A stretch of DNA of 64,000 nucleotides from positions 1-64,000 of the forward strand of contig CBDUXP010000013.1 of the NCBI GenBank assembly GCA_965371225.1. The letters are read 5' to 3'. The translations under genes were made by a program, and so were the position numbers. The DNA is from CBDUXP01 sp965371225 [NCBI: uncultured bacterium]. Lineage in GTDB: Bacteria > Abyssobacteria > SURF-5 > CBDUXP01. How positions within the stretch are numbered: position 1 is the stretch's first letter; each line of letters starts with the position of its first letter. The notes beneath the pieces were generated by a model that saw nothing but the letters and a program-made list of their open reading frames with translations, was not told the DNA's origin and searched no databases. Below, piece after piece: positions 4,646 to 10,884 of this stretch.

Positions 4646-4763
4646 GCGGAAGTGGCAAGAGCGCCCGGTACCACTGGGTGCGGGCATCCCCGCCGGCGCG
4701 CCTTCCGCCCGGCCGGGACGGCGACCATGCGGGCCTTTGGTACCATGTGAGAGGACACGCCGC

Positions 4764-5825
4764 ATGACTGCCGAAGCTGAAGCCGCGCCGGCGCCCATTG
4801 ACTGGCCAGACCGGCTGGCGGGCACCCTCCTGGGGACGGCGCTGGGCGACGCGCTGGGGCTGCCCATGGAAGGGCTCAAGGCCGCGAGCATCGCGTGGCG
4901 CTTCGGGGCTGTGGACCGATTCCATCTGCTGGGCCGCACGGGGTTCGTGTCCGACGATACGGAACAGTCCGCCCTCATGGCGCAGAGCCTGGCGCGGCAT
5001 CCCGACGACGCGGCGGCGTGCACCCGCGCCTTCCGGCGCGCGCTGCTCGGCTGGTTCCTGCGGCTCCCGTGGGGCATCGGCTTCGGCACTCTGCGCGCGT
5101 GCCTCAAGATTGCGATAGGGATTTCGCCCAGCGGCGTGAACTCCGCGGGCAATGGCGCGGCTATGCGCGCGGCGGTGGTGGGCGCATTCTTCCGCGATGA
5201 CGCCGCCGCGCGCCGCACGTTCGGCACCGCGCTCGCGGAGGTCACGCACCGGGACCCGCGGGCGGTGGAAGGCGCGCTCTTCGTCGCCGAGCTGGCCGCC
5301 GCGTGCGCGGGCGACGCGGCCGCAGTGCCGGACGCGTGTTTCAAGGCCGCCCGCCACGTGGTCGCGAATGCAGAACTGGGCGCGGCGCTGGATCGCGCGC
5401 GGGAGCTGGCCCTGGCCGAAGCGGCGACGGCCACGGCGGCGGACGCGTTGCGGACCACCGGCTTCGTCATCTGTAGCGTGCCGTTCGCCGCGTTCTGTTT
5501 CCTGCGATACGGCACCGACCCGTTCACCGCCATCACGGAGTGCGTCGAAGCGGGCGGCGACACGGATACGAACGCGGCTATGGTAGGCGCGTGGGTGGGC
5601 GCGTTGCACGGGGCCACAGCCCTGCCTGCGCACCTGGTGGAGCGCATTCATGATGGGCCGTTCGGCCCGACGCATCTGCGCGCGCTGGCGGATAACCTCG
5701 CCACCGCTGGCGCCGGCAGGCCGTACACCGTCGTACGCTACTCCGCGGTCGTGGCCCTGGCCCGGAATCTCGCGCTGTATCCCGTGATTCTGCTGCACGG
5801 GCTCCGGCGACTCCTACCCTTCTGA
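4764..5825 (+). CDS. ADP-ribosylglycohydrolase family protein
   Basis: The 353-residue protein has the metal-binding elements of the DraG/ADP-ribosylglycohydrolase fold: an N-terminal GTLLGTALGDALGLPMEG, the acidic motif SDDTE (the first position of the usual T/S-DDT motif is Ser), and a late AGGDTDTNAAMVGAWVGALHG that supplies the last two magnesium ligands. Members remove ADP-ribose from modified proteins, DNA or small molecules. No ADP-ribosyltransferase (DraT-like) gene is visible nearby, so the substrate is open. The ATG at 4764 is preferred because GAGAGG lies nine bases upstream; the frame extends further only to a TTG at 4737. Confidence 0.8.
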   Translation: MTAEAEAAPAPIDWPDRLAGTLLGTALGDALGLPMEGLKAASIAWRFGAVDRFHLLGRTGFVSDDTEQSALMAQSLARHPDDAAACTRAFRRALLGWFLRLPWGIGFGTLRACLKIAIGISPSGVNSAGNGAAMRAAVVGAFFRDDAAARRTFGTALAEVTHRDPRAVEGALFVAELAAACAGDAAAVPDACFKAARHVVANAELGAALDRARELALAEAATATAADALRTTGFVICSVPFAAFCFLRYGTDPFTAITECVEAGGDTDTNAAMVGAWVGALHGATALPAHLVERIHDGPFGPTHLRALADNLATAGAGRPYTVVRYSAVVALARNLALYPVILLHGLRRLLPF

Positions 5826-5830
5826 AGAGG

Positions 5831-7438
5831 TCAGATCGGCCGCCTCAGGTCAAATCGTTTCACGCGTGACGCGAGGGTGGTGGGCTTGATCCCGAGCAGT
5901 TCCGCGGCGCCGCCCGCCCCGTAAATCTTCCAGTCCGTCCGGCGCAACGCAACCAGGATGTTGTCGCGCTCGCGACGCTTCATCTCCCCGTCCGGCACCA
6001 CCTCCAGCTTCCCGGTCGGGGCGGCCGGGGCGGAAGGCACGCCGTCCGCCGGCAGATCAAAGTTGAGCACGTCCCCGCGCGAGGTAATGATGGCGCGCTC
6101 GAGCACGTTCTGCAGTTCGCGCACGTTGCCCGGCCAGTCATAACCCTGAAGCTGCAGGACGTTTGCCTGCGTCAGGCGCGCCCGCGGGCCCTTCATCCGC
6201 TTAGCGGCCGATTCGAGAAAGTGCTCCGCCAGCAGAGGGATGTCCTCCGGCCGCTCCCGCAGGGCCGGCGTCACCAGGGGGAACACGTTTAAGCGGTAGT
6301 AGAGATCCTGCCGGAAGTGGCCGGCCGCCACGTCGTTCTTGAGCTCCCGGTTGGTGGCGGCGATGATCCGCACGTCCACTCGCCGCGTCACGTCGTCGCC
6401 CACCCGCTCGTATTGGCCCTCCTGCAACACGCGCAGCAGCTTGCTCTGCAGCTCGATCGGGATTTCGCCCACCTCGTCCAGAAACAGGGTGCCGCCGTCG
6501 GCCAACTCGAACCGGCCGACGCGATCGCGCACCGCGCCGGTGAACGCCCCCTTCACGTGGCCGAAAAACTCACTCTCATACAGCTCGCGGGGAATCGAGG
6601 CGCAGTTCACGCGGACCATGGGCCGGGCGGCGCGAGCACTGCGCGCGTGGATCTCGCGCGCCACCAGCTCCTTGCCGGTGCCCGACTCGCCCAGGATGAG
6701 CACCGTGGCGTCGGTCGGCGCCACGAGTTCGATCTGCCGCTCGATGGTGCGCAGAGCAGCACTGTGGCCCACGATCGCGCCAAAGTCTTGCGCCTGGAGC
6801 ACTTCTTCGCGCAAGTACTCGTTCTCCAGCTCCACCTGCCGCTTCAGTCGCTCGATCTCTTCGAACGCGCGCGCATTCGCGATCGCCGCCGCGGCGTGGT
6901 CGGCCACGAGCCGTTGCCACGCGAACCGCTCGGCCGGAATCGGCCGGCGGCGAAACACCGCAAGCACGCCGAGCACGTCGCCCTTGAACACGAGGGGCTG
7001 GCCGCAGAAGGCCCGAATGCCCTCGCGTCTAGCCCACGCCGGGTCCGCGAGCCAGCTCGATTCGGCGGCCAGATCCGGCACGCCGATGGCCTCGCCCGTG
7101 GCGCCAATCCGGCCGACCTTGCGGATGCCGAGCGGAAAGCGGCGAAACGACCCGTCCACGCGCGACCAGTCGGCGTCGGGCTCGGCCTGCGGATTGCCGG
7201 CACTCGCGACCAGGTGCAGGCAGGCGGTCCGGTCCGGACAGTCCCGCCGCATGCGGCAGGTGGAGCAGATGTCGCCCGGCCGCACGAGCCAGATGCGGGC
7301 GAGGGCGACCTCCGGGTTCGCGGCGAGGCGATTCACGATCAGGTGGAGAACCGCGTCGCAGGTGCGCTGCTGGCCCATGTCCAACAGCAACTGTTTCAGC
7401 CCGTCGAATTCCGGGTCGCCCCACGAATCTCCATGCAT
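5831..7438 (-). CDS. Sigma-54-dependent activator with GAF sensor and N-terminal Cys cluster
   Basis: The product has 535 residues. Residues about 12-190 form a GAF-like sensor containing four cysteines at C58, C61, C67 and C73 (CX2CX5CX5C). A coiled linker near 200-220 leads to the AAA+ domain, with Walker A GESGTGKE near 249, the sigma-54-contacting GAFTGA loop near 296 and Walker [13 protein letters not shown]. The C-terminus ([26 protein letters not shown]) is a Fis-type helix-turn-helix. The layout matches NorR/FhlA-like bacterial enhancer-binding proteins. The cysteines suggest sensing of redox state, metal or electrophiles, which is inference. It faces a thioredoxin/oxidoreductase set across a gap with palindromes and a sigma-54 promoter. 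The frame extends to an ATG at 7486, but that start would overlap the palindrome at 7451-7468, so 7438 is preferred. Confidence 0.85.
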
Positions 7439-7450
7439 TGGGTTCCATGG

Positions 7451-7468
7451 TACACGAGATTTCGTGTA
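7451..7468. promoter_or_regulatory. Perfect palindrome, probable upstream activator site 1
   Basis: TACACGA-GATT-TCGTGTA is a perfect inverted repeat with 7-base arms and a 4-base spacer. It lies 13 bases upstream of the activator start and about 140 bases upstream of the likely thioredoxin transcription start. That is a typical enhancer distance for a sigma-54 activator, and the position would also allow autoregulation. It shares the core ACGA-N4-TCGT with a second site 38 bases away. Confidence 0.65.
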
Positions 7469-7491
7469 TAGGCAACGTATTCGCATGATTC

Positions 7492-7503
7492 ACGAAATAT
7501 CGT
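7492..7503. promoter_or_regulatory. Second ACGA-N4-TCGT palindrome, probable upstream activator site 2
   Basis: ACGA-AATA-TCGT repeats the core of the palindrome at 7451-7468. Centre-to-centre spacing is 38 bases. The outer bases match less well than in site 1, so it may be the weaker site. Paired sites are usual for hexamer-forming enhancer-binding proteins. Confidence 0.55.
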
Positions 7504-7574
7504 TTCTGTATCGCGGAAGCGCATGAACAGTGGAACCCCATGATAAAAACCGACTTCTGTCACGTGGCGCGGAT

Positions 7575-7589
7575 GGGCACGGGCCATGC
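7575..7589 (+). promoter_or_regulatory. Sigma-54 promoter (-24/-12) of the thioredoxin set
   Basis: GGGCACGGGCCATGC matches the sigma-54 consensus TGGCACGN4TTGC at 13 of 15 positions counting the four free bases. It has the invariant GG (7576-7577) and GC (7588-7589) at exactly 10 bases spacing. Transcription would start near 7601, about 30 bases before the thioredoxin ATG. The facing sigma-54 activator and paired upstream palindromes make the call stronger than sequence alone. Confidence 0.7.
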
Positions 7590-7631
7590 CCTAGTGCAGT
7601 CCCAACAGCAAGACAAGCAAAGGAGCTGAAC

Positions 7632-7985
7632 ATGACAAGCACAACGCAGACAGAGCACGCCACTGTGGCCGTTACCGACGCCGATTTTGCGGTCGAGGTG
7701 CTGGGCAGCGACGTGCCCGTGCTGGTGGACTTTTGGGCCGTCTGGTGCGGTCCCTGCCGCGTCTTGGGCCCGGTGATTGAAGAGTTGGCCGCCCACTACG
7801 ACGGCGCGGTCAAGGTAGTGAAGCTCAACGTGGACGAGAACCCGGAAACGGCGCAGGCCTACGGCGTCACCTCCATCCCGACCGTAGTGTTGTTCCATGA
7901 CGGCGATGTGGTGACCTCACTGGTAGGCGTGCAACCGAAGCAGCAATACCAGCGCGCGCTGGACACCCTCATCGCGGTCGCCTAA
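7632..7985 (+). CDS. trxA: Thioredoxin
   Basis: The 117-residue protein has the thioredoxin active site W38-C39-G40-P41-C42 in the context DFWAVWCGPCRVLGP, the cis-proline loop VTSIPTVVLFHDG, and normal family length plus a short polar N-terminal extension. It reduces protein disulfides in the cytoplasm. AGGAG at 7621-7625 sets the ATG at 7632. It is the first gene after the sigma-54 promoter. The following genes encode oxidoreductases, so this looks like a stress-inducible rather than the housekeeping thioredoxin. Confidence 0.93.
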   Translation: MTSTTQTEHATVAVTDADFAVEVLGSDVPVLVDFWAVWCGPCRVLGPVIEELAAHYDGAVKVVKLNVDENPETAQAYGVTSIPTVVLFHDGDVVTSLVGVQPKQQYQRALDTLIAVA

Positions 7986-8031: not shown

Positions 8032-9066
8032 ATGAAAGCAACAATCTTCCACGAGTTTGGAGATGTTGACGTCCTGAAGTACGAAGACGTGACCACCCCC
8101 ACCCCGAAACCCGGCAACGTCGTTGTGCGGGTGCTGGCCGCCGGCGTGAACCGGCTGGACCATTACATCCGGGAAGGATCGGTGGCGCCGGACCTGGCCT
8201 TTCCCCACACCCTGGGCATGGACGCGGTCGGCGAAGTCGCCGCCGTGGGCGCAGGTGTGACGGAGGTGGTCGAGGGCGACCGCGTGGTGCCCTTCCCGGG
8301 CTATCCGGCCAACGGGGAGGAATCCCACGTTCACCCGCCCAGCGCCGCGGCCAGCTTCACGCTGCTCGGTCTGGCGGCGCCCGGCACGTACGCGCAGTAC
8401 GTGGAAGTTCCCGCGCCGTGGGTGATGCAGGATGAAAGCGCGCTGCCCGCCGAGCAAATTGCCACCCTGCCCGTGGTGCTCCCCACCGCGGTGCGGGCCG
8501 TCAAGCACGTCGGCGAGGTGCAGGCGGGTGACAAGGTGCTGGTGCACGCCGCCGGTTCCGGCGTCGGCAGCATGCAAGTGCAGGTGGCCAAGGCGCTCGG
8601 CGCCGACGTGGCGGCTACTGTCCGCAGCGCGGCCAAGGCCGAGTTCATCGAGGCACTCGGCGCGGATGTGGTCATCAATACGCGCGAGGACGACTTCCTT
8701 GCGCGCACCCGCGATTGGACCGATGGACGCGGCGTGGACGTGGTCCTCGACAACATCGGCGGTCCCGAATTCCAGCGGAGCGTGGAAGCTGTACGGACGC
8801 AAGGTATCCTCGTGTCCGTCGGGTTTGTGGCCGGCCCCGAGGCCACGTTCAACATTCCCGACTTCTTCTTCGGCCACAAGCAGATTCGCGGCACGCTGCT
8901 GGGCGCCCCCACGGATTACCAGTGGGGCATTGAGCAGGTGCGTGCCGGGCACATTACGCCCACCGTGGCTCGCACACTGCCACTCAGCGAGGCCGCGGAA
9001 GCTCACCGGCTCATCGCAGACAACACCGTGGCCGGCAACCTCGTGTTGCTCCCCTGGGCGGACTAG
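8032..9066 (+). CDS. Zinc-independent MDR oxidoreductase, quinone-oxidoreductase type
   Basis: This 344-residue medium-chain dehydrogenase/reductase has an N-terminal GroES-like domain (VVRVLAAGVNRLDHYIREG) and a nucleotide-binding domain with VHAAGSGVGSMQVQVAKALGA, the A-x-x-G-x-G-x-x-A pattern of NADPH:quinone reductases, near residues 170-190. The structural zinc cysteines of alcohol dehydrogenases are not seen. It probably reduces quinones or alpha,beta-unsaturated carbonyls with NADPH. A good ribosome-binding site (AGGAGACGAGAGTC) precedes the ATG, 46 bases after thioredoxin, consistent with one transcript. Confidence 0.85.
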   Translation: MKATIFHEFGDVDVLKYEDVTTPTPKPGNVVVRVLAAGVNRLDHYIREGSVAPDLAFPHTLGMDAVGEVAAVGAGVTEVVEGDRVVPFPGYPANGEESHVHPPSAAASFTLLGLAAPGTYAQYVEVPAPWVMQDESALPAEQIATLPVVLPTAVRAVKHVGEVQAGDKVLVHAAGSGVGSMQVQVAKALGADVAATVRSAAKAEFIEALGADVVINTREDDFLARTRDWTDGRGVDVVLDNIGGPEFQRSVEAVRTQGILVSVGFVAGPEATFNIPDFFFGHKQIRGTLLGAPTDYQWGIEQVRAGHITPTVARTLPLSEAAEAHRLIADNTVAGNLVLLPWAD

Positions 9067-9110: not shown

Positions 9111-9656
9111 ATGCCACGCATCGAACCCATCAATCCTGAAATCGCAACCGGCAGGGCCAAGGACCTGCTCGACGGGGTGCAACAGAAATTGGGCATGGCG
9201 CCCAACCTCATGCGCACCATGGCGCAGTCGCCAGCCGTGCTGGAAGCCTACTTGGGCATCATCGGCGCGCTAGGCCGCGGCACGCTGCCGGCGAAGCTGC
9301 GCGAGCAGATCGCGCTCGCCGTCAGCGACGCGAACGGCTGTGGCTACTGCCTCGCGGCGCACTGCGCGGTCGGTAGGATGGTCGGCCTCAGCGAGGAGGC
9401 CATCTTGGACAGCCGGGCCGGCGCCTCCGCCGACAGCAAGTCCGCCGCGGCGCTCGCGTTCTCCCGCACCCTGGTGGACAAGCGGGGGTGGGTGAGCGAC
9501 GAGGAGCTGGCGCGGGTGCGCGCGGCGGGTTTCGGCGACGGGGAAGTCGCCGAGATCGTCGCGAACGTTGCCCAGTCGATCTTCAGCAACTACTTCAACC
9601 ACGTGGCGCAGACCGAGGTGGACTTCCCGCCCGCGCCCGTGGCGGCGGAGCGCTAA
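9111..9656 (+). CDS. AhpD-like carboxymuconolactone decarboxylase family protein (peroxidase-related)
   Basis: The 181-residue helical protein has the AhpD-type active site C77-G-Y-C80-L-A-A-H84 within AVSDANGCGYCLAAHCAVG. In AhpD the two cysteines are a redox pair and the histidine relays a proton, linking peroxide reduction to a thiol donor. The neighbouring thioredoxin is a plausible electron donor, which is inference. It follows the MDR gene after 44 bases and shares its direction, so it is probably co-transcribed. Confidence 0.82.
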   Translation: MPRIEPINPEIATGRAKDLLDGVQQKLGMAPNLMRTMAQSPAVLEAYLGIIGALGRGTLPAKLREQIALAVSDANGCGYCLAAHCAVGRMVGLSEEAILDSRAGASADSKSAAALAFSRTLVDKRGWVSDEELARVRAAGFGDGEVAEIVANVAQSIFSNYFNHVAQTEVDFPPAPVAAER

Positions 9657-10368: not shown

Positions 10369-10689
10369 ATGCCCGACTACACGTTGGTCAGTTTTGACAT
10401 TTGCCCCTTTGTCCAGCGCAGCGCGATCACCCTGGAAGAGCGGCAGGTACCCCATGAACTCGAGTACATCGAACTCGCGAACCCACCCGACTGGTTCTCT
10501 GCAGCCTCCCCCCTGGGCAAAGTGCCTATCCTGTTGACGGGGGGAGCGGCGCTGCTCGGGCGTGAAAGCGTGCGGCGTTCGACCGTGCCCGATATCCGCG
10601 AACGCTATCTGGGCTACCTGCAAGGCCGGCGCCATCGGGGCGGTGATCGGGAGCCGAGCTGGCTTGGTCGGCTGGCCCCGGTGAGCTGA
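10369..10689 (+). pseudogene. Truncated glutathione S-transferase, N-terminal domain only
   Basis: The first 60 residues are a good thioredoxin-like GST domain: VSFDICPFVQRSAITLEERQ (with a C-P-F-x-Q-R active-site pattern) and SPLGKVPILLTGG with the cis-proline. After GGAALLGRE the family pattern (normally x-E-S-x-x-I-x-x-Y-L) is lost, and the frame continues as arginine/glycine-rich sequence to a stop at 10689. The total is 106 residues instead of about 200-230, with no helical C-terminal domain. It starts 14 bases after the flavin-binding gene. It is most simply a decayed last gene of the redox set, cut short about 100 bases before a tRNA gene. Confidence 0.65.
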
Positions 10690-10792: not shown

Positions 10793-10884
10793 GGAGAGGT
10801 GGCAGAGCCCGGTTGAATGCGCCTGACTCGAAATCAGGTGTCGGGGCAACCCGACCGGGGGTTCGAATCCCTCCCTCTCCGCCA
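10793..10884 (+). tRNA. tRNA-Ser, anticodon CGA
   Basis: The acceptor arms GGAGAGG (10793-10799) and CCTCTCC (10874-10880) pair fully, followed by discriminator G and encoded CCA (10882-10884). The anticodon stem CCTGA/TCAGG encloses the loop CTCGAAA with anticodon CGA, which reads UCG. A long variable arm and the T-loop GTTCGAATC are present, as expected for a class II serine tRNA. Confidence 0.95.

What the first reader, a model, noticed from the sequence alone, without database searches (positions are those of the whole stretch)
5831..7631. Self-contained sigma-54 redox switch: activator, paired palindromes and -24/-12 promoter
Seen: an activator gene with GAFTGA faces a thioredoxin gene. 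The 193-base gap holds two ACGA-N4-TCGT palindromes 38 bases apart and a sigma-54 promoter match with exact GG-N10-GC spacing. Known: enhancer-binding proteins act from such distances. Inference: the activator senses redox or electrophile stress and turns on thioredoxin, MDR reductase, AhpD-like and flavin-binding genes. I know of no described sigma-54 activator with this target set.
Basis: partly seen in the sequence, partly recalled or inferred. Interest (0 to 1): 0.72.

Follow-up and report, generated by a model that had tools for sequence, protein, structure and literature searches.

The report
Conserved sigma-54 switch for detoxification genes
A bacterial regulator gene and the detoxification genes it faces share a control region whose three binding sites and special promoter keep the same layout in relatives from several bacterial phyla, so this looks like a real, apparently undescribed stress switch.

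Summary
The regulator (5831-7438, -) is a GAF/AAA+/HTH sigma-54 activator facing trxA, an MDR reductase, an AhpD-like gene and a PPOX-type flavoprotein gene. Alone, the promoter match is no better than chance. Among the window and 80 relatives (54-67% identical, several phyla) the architecture recurs: at least two ACGA-N4-TCGT sites precede the regulator in 55 of 78 loci (shuffles: mean 0.23, maximum 3), and three sites plus a divergent -24/-12 promoter 78-83 nt from the distal site in 48 of 75 (0 in 100 shuffles). The window also has a degenerate middle site at 7475-7486, so the layout resembles NorR's. It is not NorR: NorR iron-centre residues are missing, and the GAF instead carries four cysteines (each in 78-81 of 81). 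Divergent genes recur: CMD/AhpD-like (49 of 81 loci), PPOX, alpha/beta hydrolase, DUF1348, quinone reductase, thioredoxin, N-ethylmaleimide reductase, RclC-like. Best reading: a local sigma-54 activator sensing thiol-reactive oxidants or electrophiles through the cysteine GAF. Site and promoter logic is well supported; the signal is inferred. The window's organism is unknown; nothing was tested experimentally.

The parts
5831..7438 (-). sigma-54 enhancer-binding protein (535 aa): GAF 30-186, AAA+ 222-388, AAA lid 394-461, C-terminal HTH (by position and likeness to other activators); GAFTGA at 297-302
   Evidence: the longer ATG start at 7486 would overlap the sites at 7454 and 7475, and 78 of 80 relatives align from residue 1-21 of the 7438 start
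7220..7267 (-). codons 58-73 of the regulator: four-cysteine motif C58-X2-C61-X5-C67-X5-C73 in the GAF domain
   Evidence: C in 81, 78, 80 and 80 of 81 aligned proteins; exact spacing in 72 of 81; the model places it between two GAF strands in a confidently predicted stretch
7454..7465 (.). enhancer site 1, ACGAGATTTCGT (perfect ACGA-N4-TCGT)
7475..7486 (.). degenerate middle site, ACGTATTCGCAT (3 of 8 positions differ), at the conserved spacing 21/17
7492..7503 (.). enhancer site 3, ACGAAATATCGT (perfect)
7554..7559 (.). CTTCTG, a one-mismatch copy of the CTTAYG element found at -22..-19 before the promoter in relatives (role unknown; the partner element YAA at -43..-41 is absent in the window)
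7575..7590 (+). sigma-54 promoter GGGCACGGGCCATGCC (GG 7576-7577, GC 7588-7589), 83 nt from the start of the distal site
7632..7985 (+). thioredoxin (TrxA type, WCGPC)
   Evidence: PF00085 4.4e-29; TIGR01068 123.5 bits (cut-off 96.8)
8032..9066 (+). MDR / quinone-oxidoreductase-like reductase
   Evidence: PF08240, PF00107; PIG3 family 220.8 bits, below cut-off 296.8
9111..9656 (+). CMD/AhpD-like peroxidase-related protein with E-X11-C-X2-C-X3-H
   Evidence: PF02627; ahpD_dom 52.5 bits, cut-off 27.8; TIGR01926 68.0, below cut-off 81.8; motif in 38 of 49 cluster members of at least 140 aa
9737..10354 (+). PPOX-type flavoprotein (FMN binding inferred from the family)
   Evidence: PF01243; TIGR04025 48.8 bits, below cut-off 170; homologue on the divergent side in 32 of 81 loci, window included
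10369..10689 (+). short ORF with a glutathione S-transferase N-terminal domain only
   Evidence: close homologue on the divergent side in 1 of 81 loci, the window itself

Best explanation
A NorR-style sigma-54 divergon with a different sensor and cargo. The regulator binds three tandem inverted repeats (ACGA-N4-TCGT, spaced about 21 and 17-18) just upstream of its own gene, where it can assemble an AAA+ ring. From about 80 nt away it contacts RpoN polymerase at the fixed -24/-12 promoter of the divergent operon. In the resting state the GAF domain holds the AAA+ domain off. Reaction of a thiol-reactive oxidant or electrophile (quinones, maleimide-like compounds, reactive chlorine) with the four-cysteine GAF centre, either bare thiols or a bound Zn or Fe-S centre, releases it. 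The operon (thioredoxin, quinone/enal reductase, AhpD-like peroxidase, flavoprotein) then removes the agent and repairs thiols. Shown by comparison: sites, spacing, promoter position, conserved cysteines, recurrent cargo. Inferred: binding, activation, co-transcription, the identity of the signal, and the GAF repression mode (by analogy with NorR).
For: At least 2 sites (<=1 mismatch) in 55 of 78 loci against a shuffle mean of 0.23 (max 3 of 200 shuffles) and 0 of 334 control slices. Triple array plus promoter at the fixed offset in 48 of 75 loci, 0 in 100 shuffles. Of 39 genomes searched for perfect pairs (40 of 80 loci were given, one genome not held), 24 have any: 23 have them upstream of this regulator, and the 24th beside a second, frame-broken copy of it. 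RpoN in 6 of 6 genomes tested. Cys58/61/67/73 in 81/78/80/80 of 81. Divergent cargo by tblastn: CMD 49, PPOX 32, alpha/beta hydrolase 27, DUF1348 19, SDR 9, MDR 8, SnoaL-like 8, Trx 7, DsrE 7, N-ethylmaleimide reductase 6, RclC-like 5, FAD disulfide reductase 2 of 81 loci, window included (families named). In Pseudomonas aeruginosa the AhpD-family gene rclX is activated by the adjacent RclR on HOCl/HOSCN and protects against both (PMC7950407, passages).
Against: No binding, expression or redox data. The loci are related and not independent (10 Nitrospirota are close copies). 27 of 75 loci fail the triple-plus-promoter test: 6 of the 7 Verrucomicrobiota tested, 6 Phycisphaerae whose sites look like a variant (ACGC/ACGT...GCGT, by eye), and 15 others; 14 of the 27 still have the promoter at that offset. 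15 of 39 genomes have no perfect pair, and 4 have pairs elsewhere. 13 of 67 loci with at least 1500 nt upstream have none of the listed families on the divergent side. In L035 the first divergent gene encodes a sigma-70-like factor (L037: same cluster) rather than an enzyme. L029 and L080 lack Cys61 and L077 keeps only Cys58 of the four. Much of the cargo (hydrolase, SDR, SnoaL, isochorismatase) would also fit catabolism. AhpD motif absent in 11 of 49 CMD members, WCGPC in 4 of 7 Trx.
Confidence: 0.68

Rival explanations
1. The regulator is a catabolic activator: the GAF domain binds a small organic compound (aromatic, halogenated or carboxylic), and the operon degrades it. The cysteines are structural (zinc).
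For: Cargo includes haloalkane-dehalogenase-like alpha/beta hydrolase (27 of 81 loci), MDR and SDR dehydrogenases, CMD, SnoaL-like and isochorismatase-family proteins.
Against: No transporter or ring-cleavage enzyme among the representatives of the 14 recurrent clusters that I scanned (clusters c11, c21, c25 and 39 single proteins were not all scanned). Trx, AhpD-like with catalytic motif, DsrE, RclC-like and N-ethylmaleimide reductase are not one catabolic pathway. Gene content varies between loci while the switch stays the same.
Confidence: 0.17
2. A NorR-type nitric oxide sensor: same three-site divergon, with NO detected at a GAF iron or Fe-S centre.
For: Very similar architecture: the E. 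coli norR-norV gap is 186 bases with three GT-N7-AC sites (spacing 21 and 24) and a sigma-54 promoter; NorR model 383.8 bits. A four-Cys Fe-S centre could also react with NO.
Against: NorR cut-off is 476. NorR R75, R81, D99, H111 and C113 align with K, A, L, R, F in the window protein. No flavorubredoxin, NO reductase, flavohaemoglobin or Hcp among the scanned representatives of recurrent divergent clusters (no dedicated search was made). Binding-site sequence differs.
Confidence: 0.08
3. Chance: palindromes and a weak promoter match in an ordinary gap.
For: In the window alone the promoter match is below chance expectation and the palindrome count only borderline.
Against: Conservation with fixed spacing in relatives from several phyla.
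Confidence: 0.01

Closest known systems
NorR / norVW divergon (Escherichia coli)
   Same: GAF-AAA+-HTH activator, divergent target, three enhancer sites next to the regulator (first spacing 21), sigma-54 promoter less than 100 nt away, gap of 186 against 193 bases
   Different: Site is ACGA-N4-TCGT, not GT-N7-AC; second spacing 17-18 against 24; distal site to promoter 78-83 against 66 (start to start); NorR iron-centre residues absent, four cysteines instead; other cargo
VnfA / AnfA (Azotobacter vinelandii)
   Same: Sigma-54 activators with conserved cysteines in the N-terminal GAF region that are needed for activity; VnfA may hold a [3Fe-4S] cluster (PMC9542535, passages)
   Different: They control alternative nitrogenases; their cysteine layout was not compared here
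RclR with rclX / rclABC (Pseudomonas, E. coli)
   Same: Local activator switching on adjacent AhpD-family (rclX) or rclABC genes under HOCl or HOSCN (PMC7950407, passages); RclC-like and disulfide-reductase genes occur in the present cluster in 5 and 2 of 81 loci
   Different: RclR is an AraC-type activator (recalled), not sigma-54; homology of the window CMD protein to RclX not tested; the RclC-like protein scores 253 against a cut-off of 275
NemR / NemA
   Same: N-ethylmaleimide reductase on the divergent side in 6 of 81 loci; the L019 protein scores 422.3 bits against a cut-off of 403
   Different: NemR is a TetR-type repressor (recalled); the window itself has no such gene in the cluster

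Membership tests
sigma-54 enhancer-binding protein | Sigma54_activat AAA+ domain with GAFTGA loop | tested here: met
   PF00158 239.9 bits (cut-off 20.2); GAFTGA in window; 57 GAFTGA, 20 GSFTGA, 3 GAFSGA, 1 GAFNGA among 81
sigma-54 enhancer-binding protein | RpoN in the genome | tested here: inconclusive
   Window genome not held; 6 of 6 relatives' genomes tested have PF04552 over cut-off
NorR | Score over the curated NorR model cut-off | tested here: not met
   383.8 against 476 bits
NorR | Residues of the non-haem iron centre (R75, D99, H111, C113; Y98 not checked) | tested here: not met
   K, L, R, F in the window protein; in 9 of 80 relatives aligned: K or V, I/L/V, R/Q/A, F (residues from PMC2941729, passages)
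NorR | Three GT-N7-AC sites before the promoter (site pattern recalled; three sites in PMC2941729, passages) | tested here: not met
   Three sites, but ACGA-N4-TCGT with other spacing
NifA, FhlA | Score over curated cut-off | tested here: not met
   387.8 against 528.85; 402.2 against 830
Thiol or metal GAF sensor (as VnfA) | Conserved cysteines in the GAF domain | tested here: met
Thiol or metal GAF sensor (as VnfA) | Bound Fe-S or metal, loss of function on Cys change | not testable with these tools
   needs protein chemistry
AhpD-type peroxidase (CMD gene) | E-X11-C-X2-C-X3-H relay motif (recalled from AhpD) | tested here: met
   window protein has it; 38 of 49 cluster members of at least 140 aa

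The most novel reading that the evidence does not exclude
An undescribed, phylum-spanning sigma-54 family in which a four-cysteine (Fe-S, Zn or bare-thiol) GAF domain senses reactive chlorine or electrophiles directly and drives a fixed three-enhancer promoter. Evolution has kept the switch while exchanging the detoxification cargo, in two loci even for a sigma-70-like factor that would give a cascade.
Probability: 0.45. Interest if true: 0.75.

Novelty: new variant of a known kind. Interest (0 to 1): 0.6.

Why it matters
Thiol-oxidant and electrophile defence is known mainly from OxyR, RclR, NemR and MarR-type regulators (recalled). A conserved sigma-54, ATP-driven switch for it in Planctomycetota, Nitrospirota, Myxococcota and others would give those groups a predicted stress regulon, a ready binding motif (ACGA-N4-TCGT, spacings 21 and 17-18, promoter at about 80) and a testable new GAF sensor.

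Tried and rejected
Whole-genome search of the window's own assembly: not held. Chance explanation: rejected. NorR membership: rejected. Solved structures: 37 sequence matches, covering the AAA+ part (the best, a Nif regulator, from residue 152) and one weak GAF. Fold search of the GAF model: the 50 listed neighbours are GAF-type structures at 9-22% identity; their metal sites were not examined. Plasmid collection with the GAF domain: 4 weak cyanobacterial matches, none covering 80%. Literature: searches listed no paper whose title or abstract opening describes a sigma-54 activator of this gene set; three lists were capped (10 of 11, 12 of 46 and 8 of 80 papers), and the library is open-access only. 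Passages of PMC4641369 (Desulfovibrio sigma-54 regulome) showed 0 occurrences of 'thioredoxin', 'redox' and 'nitric oxide'. A greedy gene caller merged SDR with MDR and alpha/beta hydrolase with isochorismatase, so cargo counts come from tblastn; the first-gene tally is still from that caller. The spacer elements YAA at -43..-41 (53 of 65; mononucleotide-shuffle mean 8.8, max 20) and [CT]TTA[TC]G at -22..-19 (21 of 65; mean 0.4, max 4) are conserved but unexplained; an IHF-like core YAA-N4-TT (pattern recalled) fits 26 of 53 and the fuller YAA-N4-TTGAT 1 of 53, so IHF was not adopted. For those counts 11 of 81 loci gave no promoter row and 5 of the 70 rows (L003, L042, L056, L076, L077) were dropped because the promoter placement was unclear or wrong. 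The related-loci scan kept 80 of 458 relatives, so the statistics describe the closest relatives only.

Full report
What is there. [quoted passage not shown] it ends at 5831 and starts at 7438. A longer reading frame to 7486 exists, but 78 of 80 relatives align from residue 1-21 of the shorter one. Facing it, after 193 bases, are thioredoxin, an MDR-type quinone reductase, a CMD/AhpD-like protein, a PPOX-type flavoprotein and a GST N-terminal fragment. No whole genome is held for the window, and the regulator tree gives the window no supported home.

Is it more than chance? In the window alone the evidence is thin: 3 palindrome matches against 0.89 expected, and promoter-like matches at up to 3 mismatches are fewer than expected (83 against 114.7). 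So I fetched 80 relatives of the regulator (54-67% identity, the best 80 of 458) and looked at the DNA before each. Of 78 loci with enough upstream sequence, window included (78 of 81), 55 have at least two ACGA-N4-TCGT sites with at most one mismatch within 110 nt, and 31 have at least two perfect ones. Two hundred dinucleotide shuffles gave means of 0.23 and 0.005 (maxima 3 and 1), and 334 control slices of the same loci gave none. The spacings cluster at 21, 17-18 and their sum 38-39. Looking for three sites at spacings 20-22 and 17-19, 51 of 75 loci reach at most 6 mismatches of 24. Of these, 48 also have a divergent sigma-54 match (<=3 mismatches) starting 78-83 nt from the distal site; 100 shuffles gave 0 such loci, and shuffling the spacer alone gave 0.6 on average, 4 at most, of the 51. 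The window scores (0, 3, 0) for its three sites and has the promoter at 83. The 48 carry labels of seven phyla in the record titles and tree (Planctomycetota, Nitrospirota, Myxococcota, Pseudomonadota, Nitrospinota, Verrucomicrobiota, Hydrogenedentota), though some bins may be mislabelled: L007, titled Nitrosomonas, sits beside a Nitrospirota row. The loci are related, so these figures are not independent trials. Against: 27 of 75 loci fail the joint test, among them 6 of the 7 Verrucomicrobiota tested, 6 Phycisphaerae and 15 others; 14 of the 27 still have the promoter at that offset.

Are the sites this regulator's? I gave 40 of the 80 loci to a whole-genome search for perfect pairs; 39 genomes were held and 24 have a pair. 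In 23 of these it lies upstream of the regulator, and in the remaining genome (Desulfosarcina) it lies beside a second, frame-broken copy of the regulator that faces an isochorismatase-family gene. Four of the 24 also have pairs elsewhere: one extra place each in three, two in the fourth. Of these five places I fetched three, and none has a regulator relative within the 9-10 kb read. Fifteen of the 39 have no perfect pair. The reversed control pattern matched in 1 of 39. RpoN is present in 6 of 6 genomes tested.

The sensor. Across 81 aligned regulators, Cys58, 61, 67 and 73 are kept in 81, 78, 80 and 80, with the exact CX2CX5CX5C spacing in 72; L077 keeps only Cys58. The 50 fold neighbours listed are GAF-type structures. 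NorR is the nearest mechanistic relative: E. coli norR-norV has a 186-base gap, three sites spaced 21 and 24 and a sigma-54 promoter 66 nt from the distal one. But residues whose substitution disrupts the NorR iron centre (R75, D99, H111, C113) and the repression residue R81 (PMC2941729, passages) are K, L, R, F and A in the window protein, and its NorR model score is below cut-off. Cysteine-bearing GAF activators have a precedent in VnfA, where a [3Fe-4S] cluster is suspected (PMC9542535, passages).

The cargo. By tblastn on the divergent side, of 81 loci with the window included (67 with at least 1500 nt upstream): CMD/AhpD-like 49, PPOX 32, alpha/beta hydrolase 27, DUF1348 19, SDR 9, MDR 8, SnoaL-like 8, Trx 7, DsrE 7, N-ethylmaleimide reductase 6, RclC-like 5, YHS 4, DUF5069 4, FAD disulfide reductase 2. 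Co-transcription was not tested. The CMD gene lies within 1200 nt in 41 of 67; the window is not among these, because trxA and the MDR gene come first. CMD cluster members keep the AhpD relay motif in 38 of 49, and 4 of 7 Trx have WCGPC. The NemA-type protein of L019 passes its curated cut-off, while the RclC-like one falls short, 253 against 275. In Pseudomonas aeruginosa an AhpD-family gene, rclX, is switched on by its neighbour RclR under HOCl and HOSCN and is needed for resistance (PMC7950407, passages). These facts point to thiol-reactive oxidants or electrophiles as the signal, but they are association, not proof: 13 of the 67 loci have none of these families on the divergent side, and part of the cargo would suit catabolism.

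Verdict. A real, conserved, apparently undescribed (searches, in an open-access library, listings only) sigma-54 divergon. It works like NorR but is not NorR; the most likely signal is thiol stress.

Noticed in passing
window 7554-7559; the same place in relatives (one search lists 25 loci): Two short elements, YAA(G) at -43..-41 and CTTAYG at -22..-19 before the sigma-54 promoter, form an imperfect inverted repeat about two helical turns apart; 25 of 65 relatives have both, 53 of 65 the YAA. Role unknown: architectural protein, second regulator or the regulator's own promoter.
   Followed up: partly
L035:4293-5747 and L037: The same switch faces a gene for a sigma-70-like factor with an N-terminal HTH, suggesting a sigma cascade (Pfam for L035; L037 by cluster only).
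   Followed up: partly
L081:4471-5801: Desulfosarcina alkanivorans carries a second copy of the regulator split between two frames, with intact paired sites and an isochorismatase-family gene opposite.
   Followed up: partly
L084:4382-4411: A perfect site pair away from any regulator relative, with a weakly thioredoxin-like frame (32% identity) at 2573-2809 about 1.6 kb away; a possible second target or chance.
   Followed up: no
window 10369-10689: GST N-terminal domain ORF without the C-terminal domain, just before tRNA-Ser(cga) at 10793-10884; in L071 the first divergent gene is a full GST.
   Followed up: no
window 4737-5825: ADP-ribosylglycohydrolase gene (PF03747, 190.5 bits) converging on the regulator gene; no close homologue near the regulator in the other 80 loci.
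   Followed up: no
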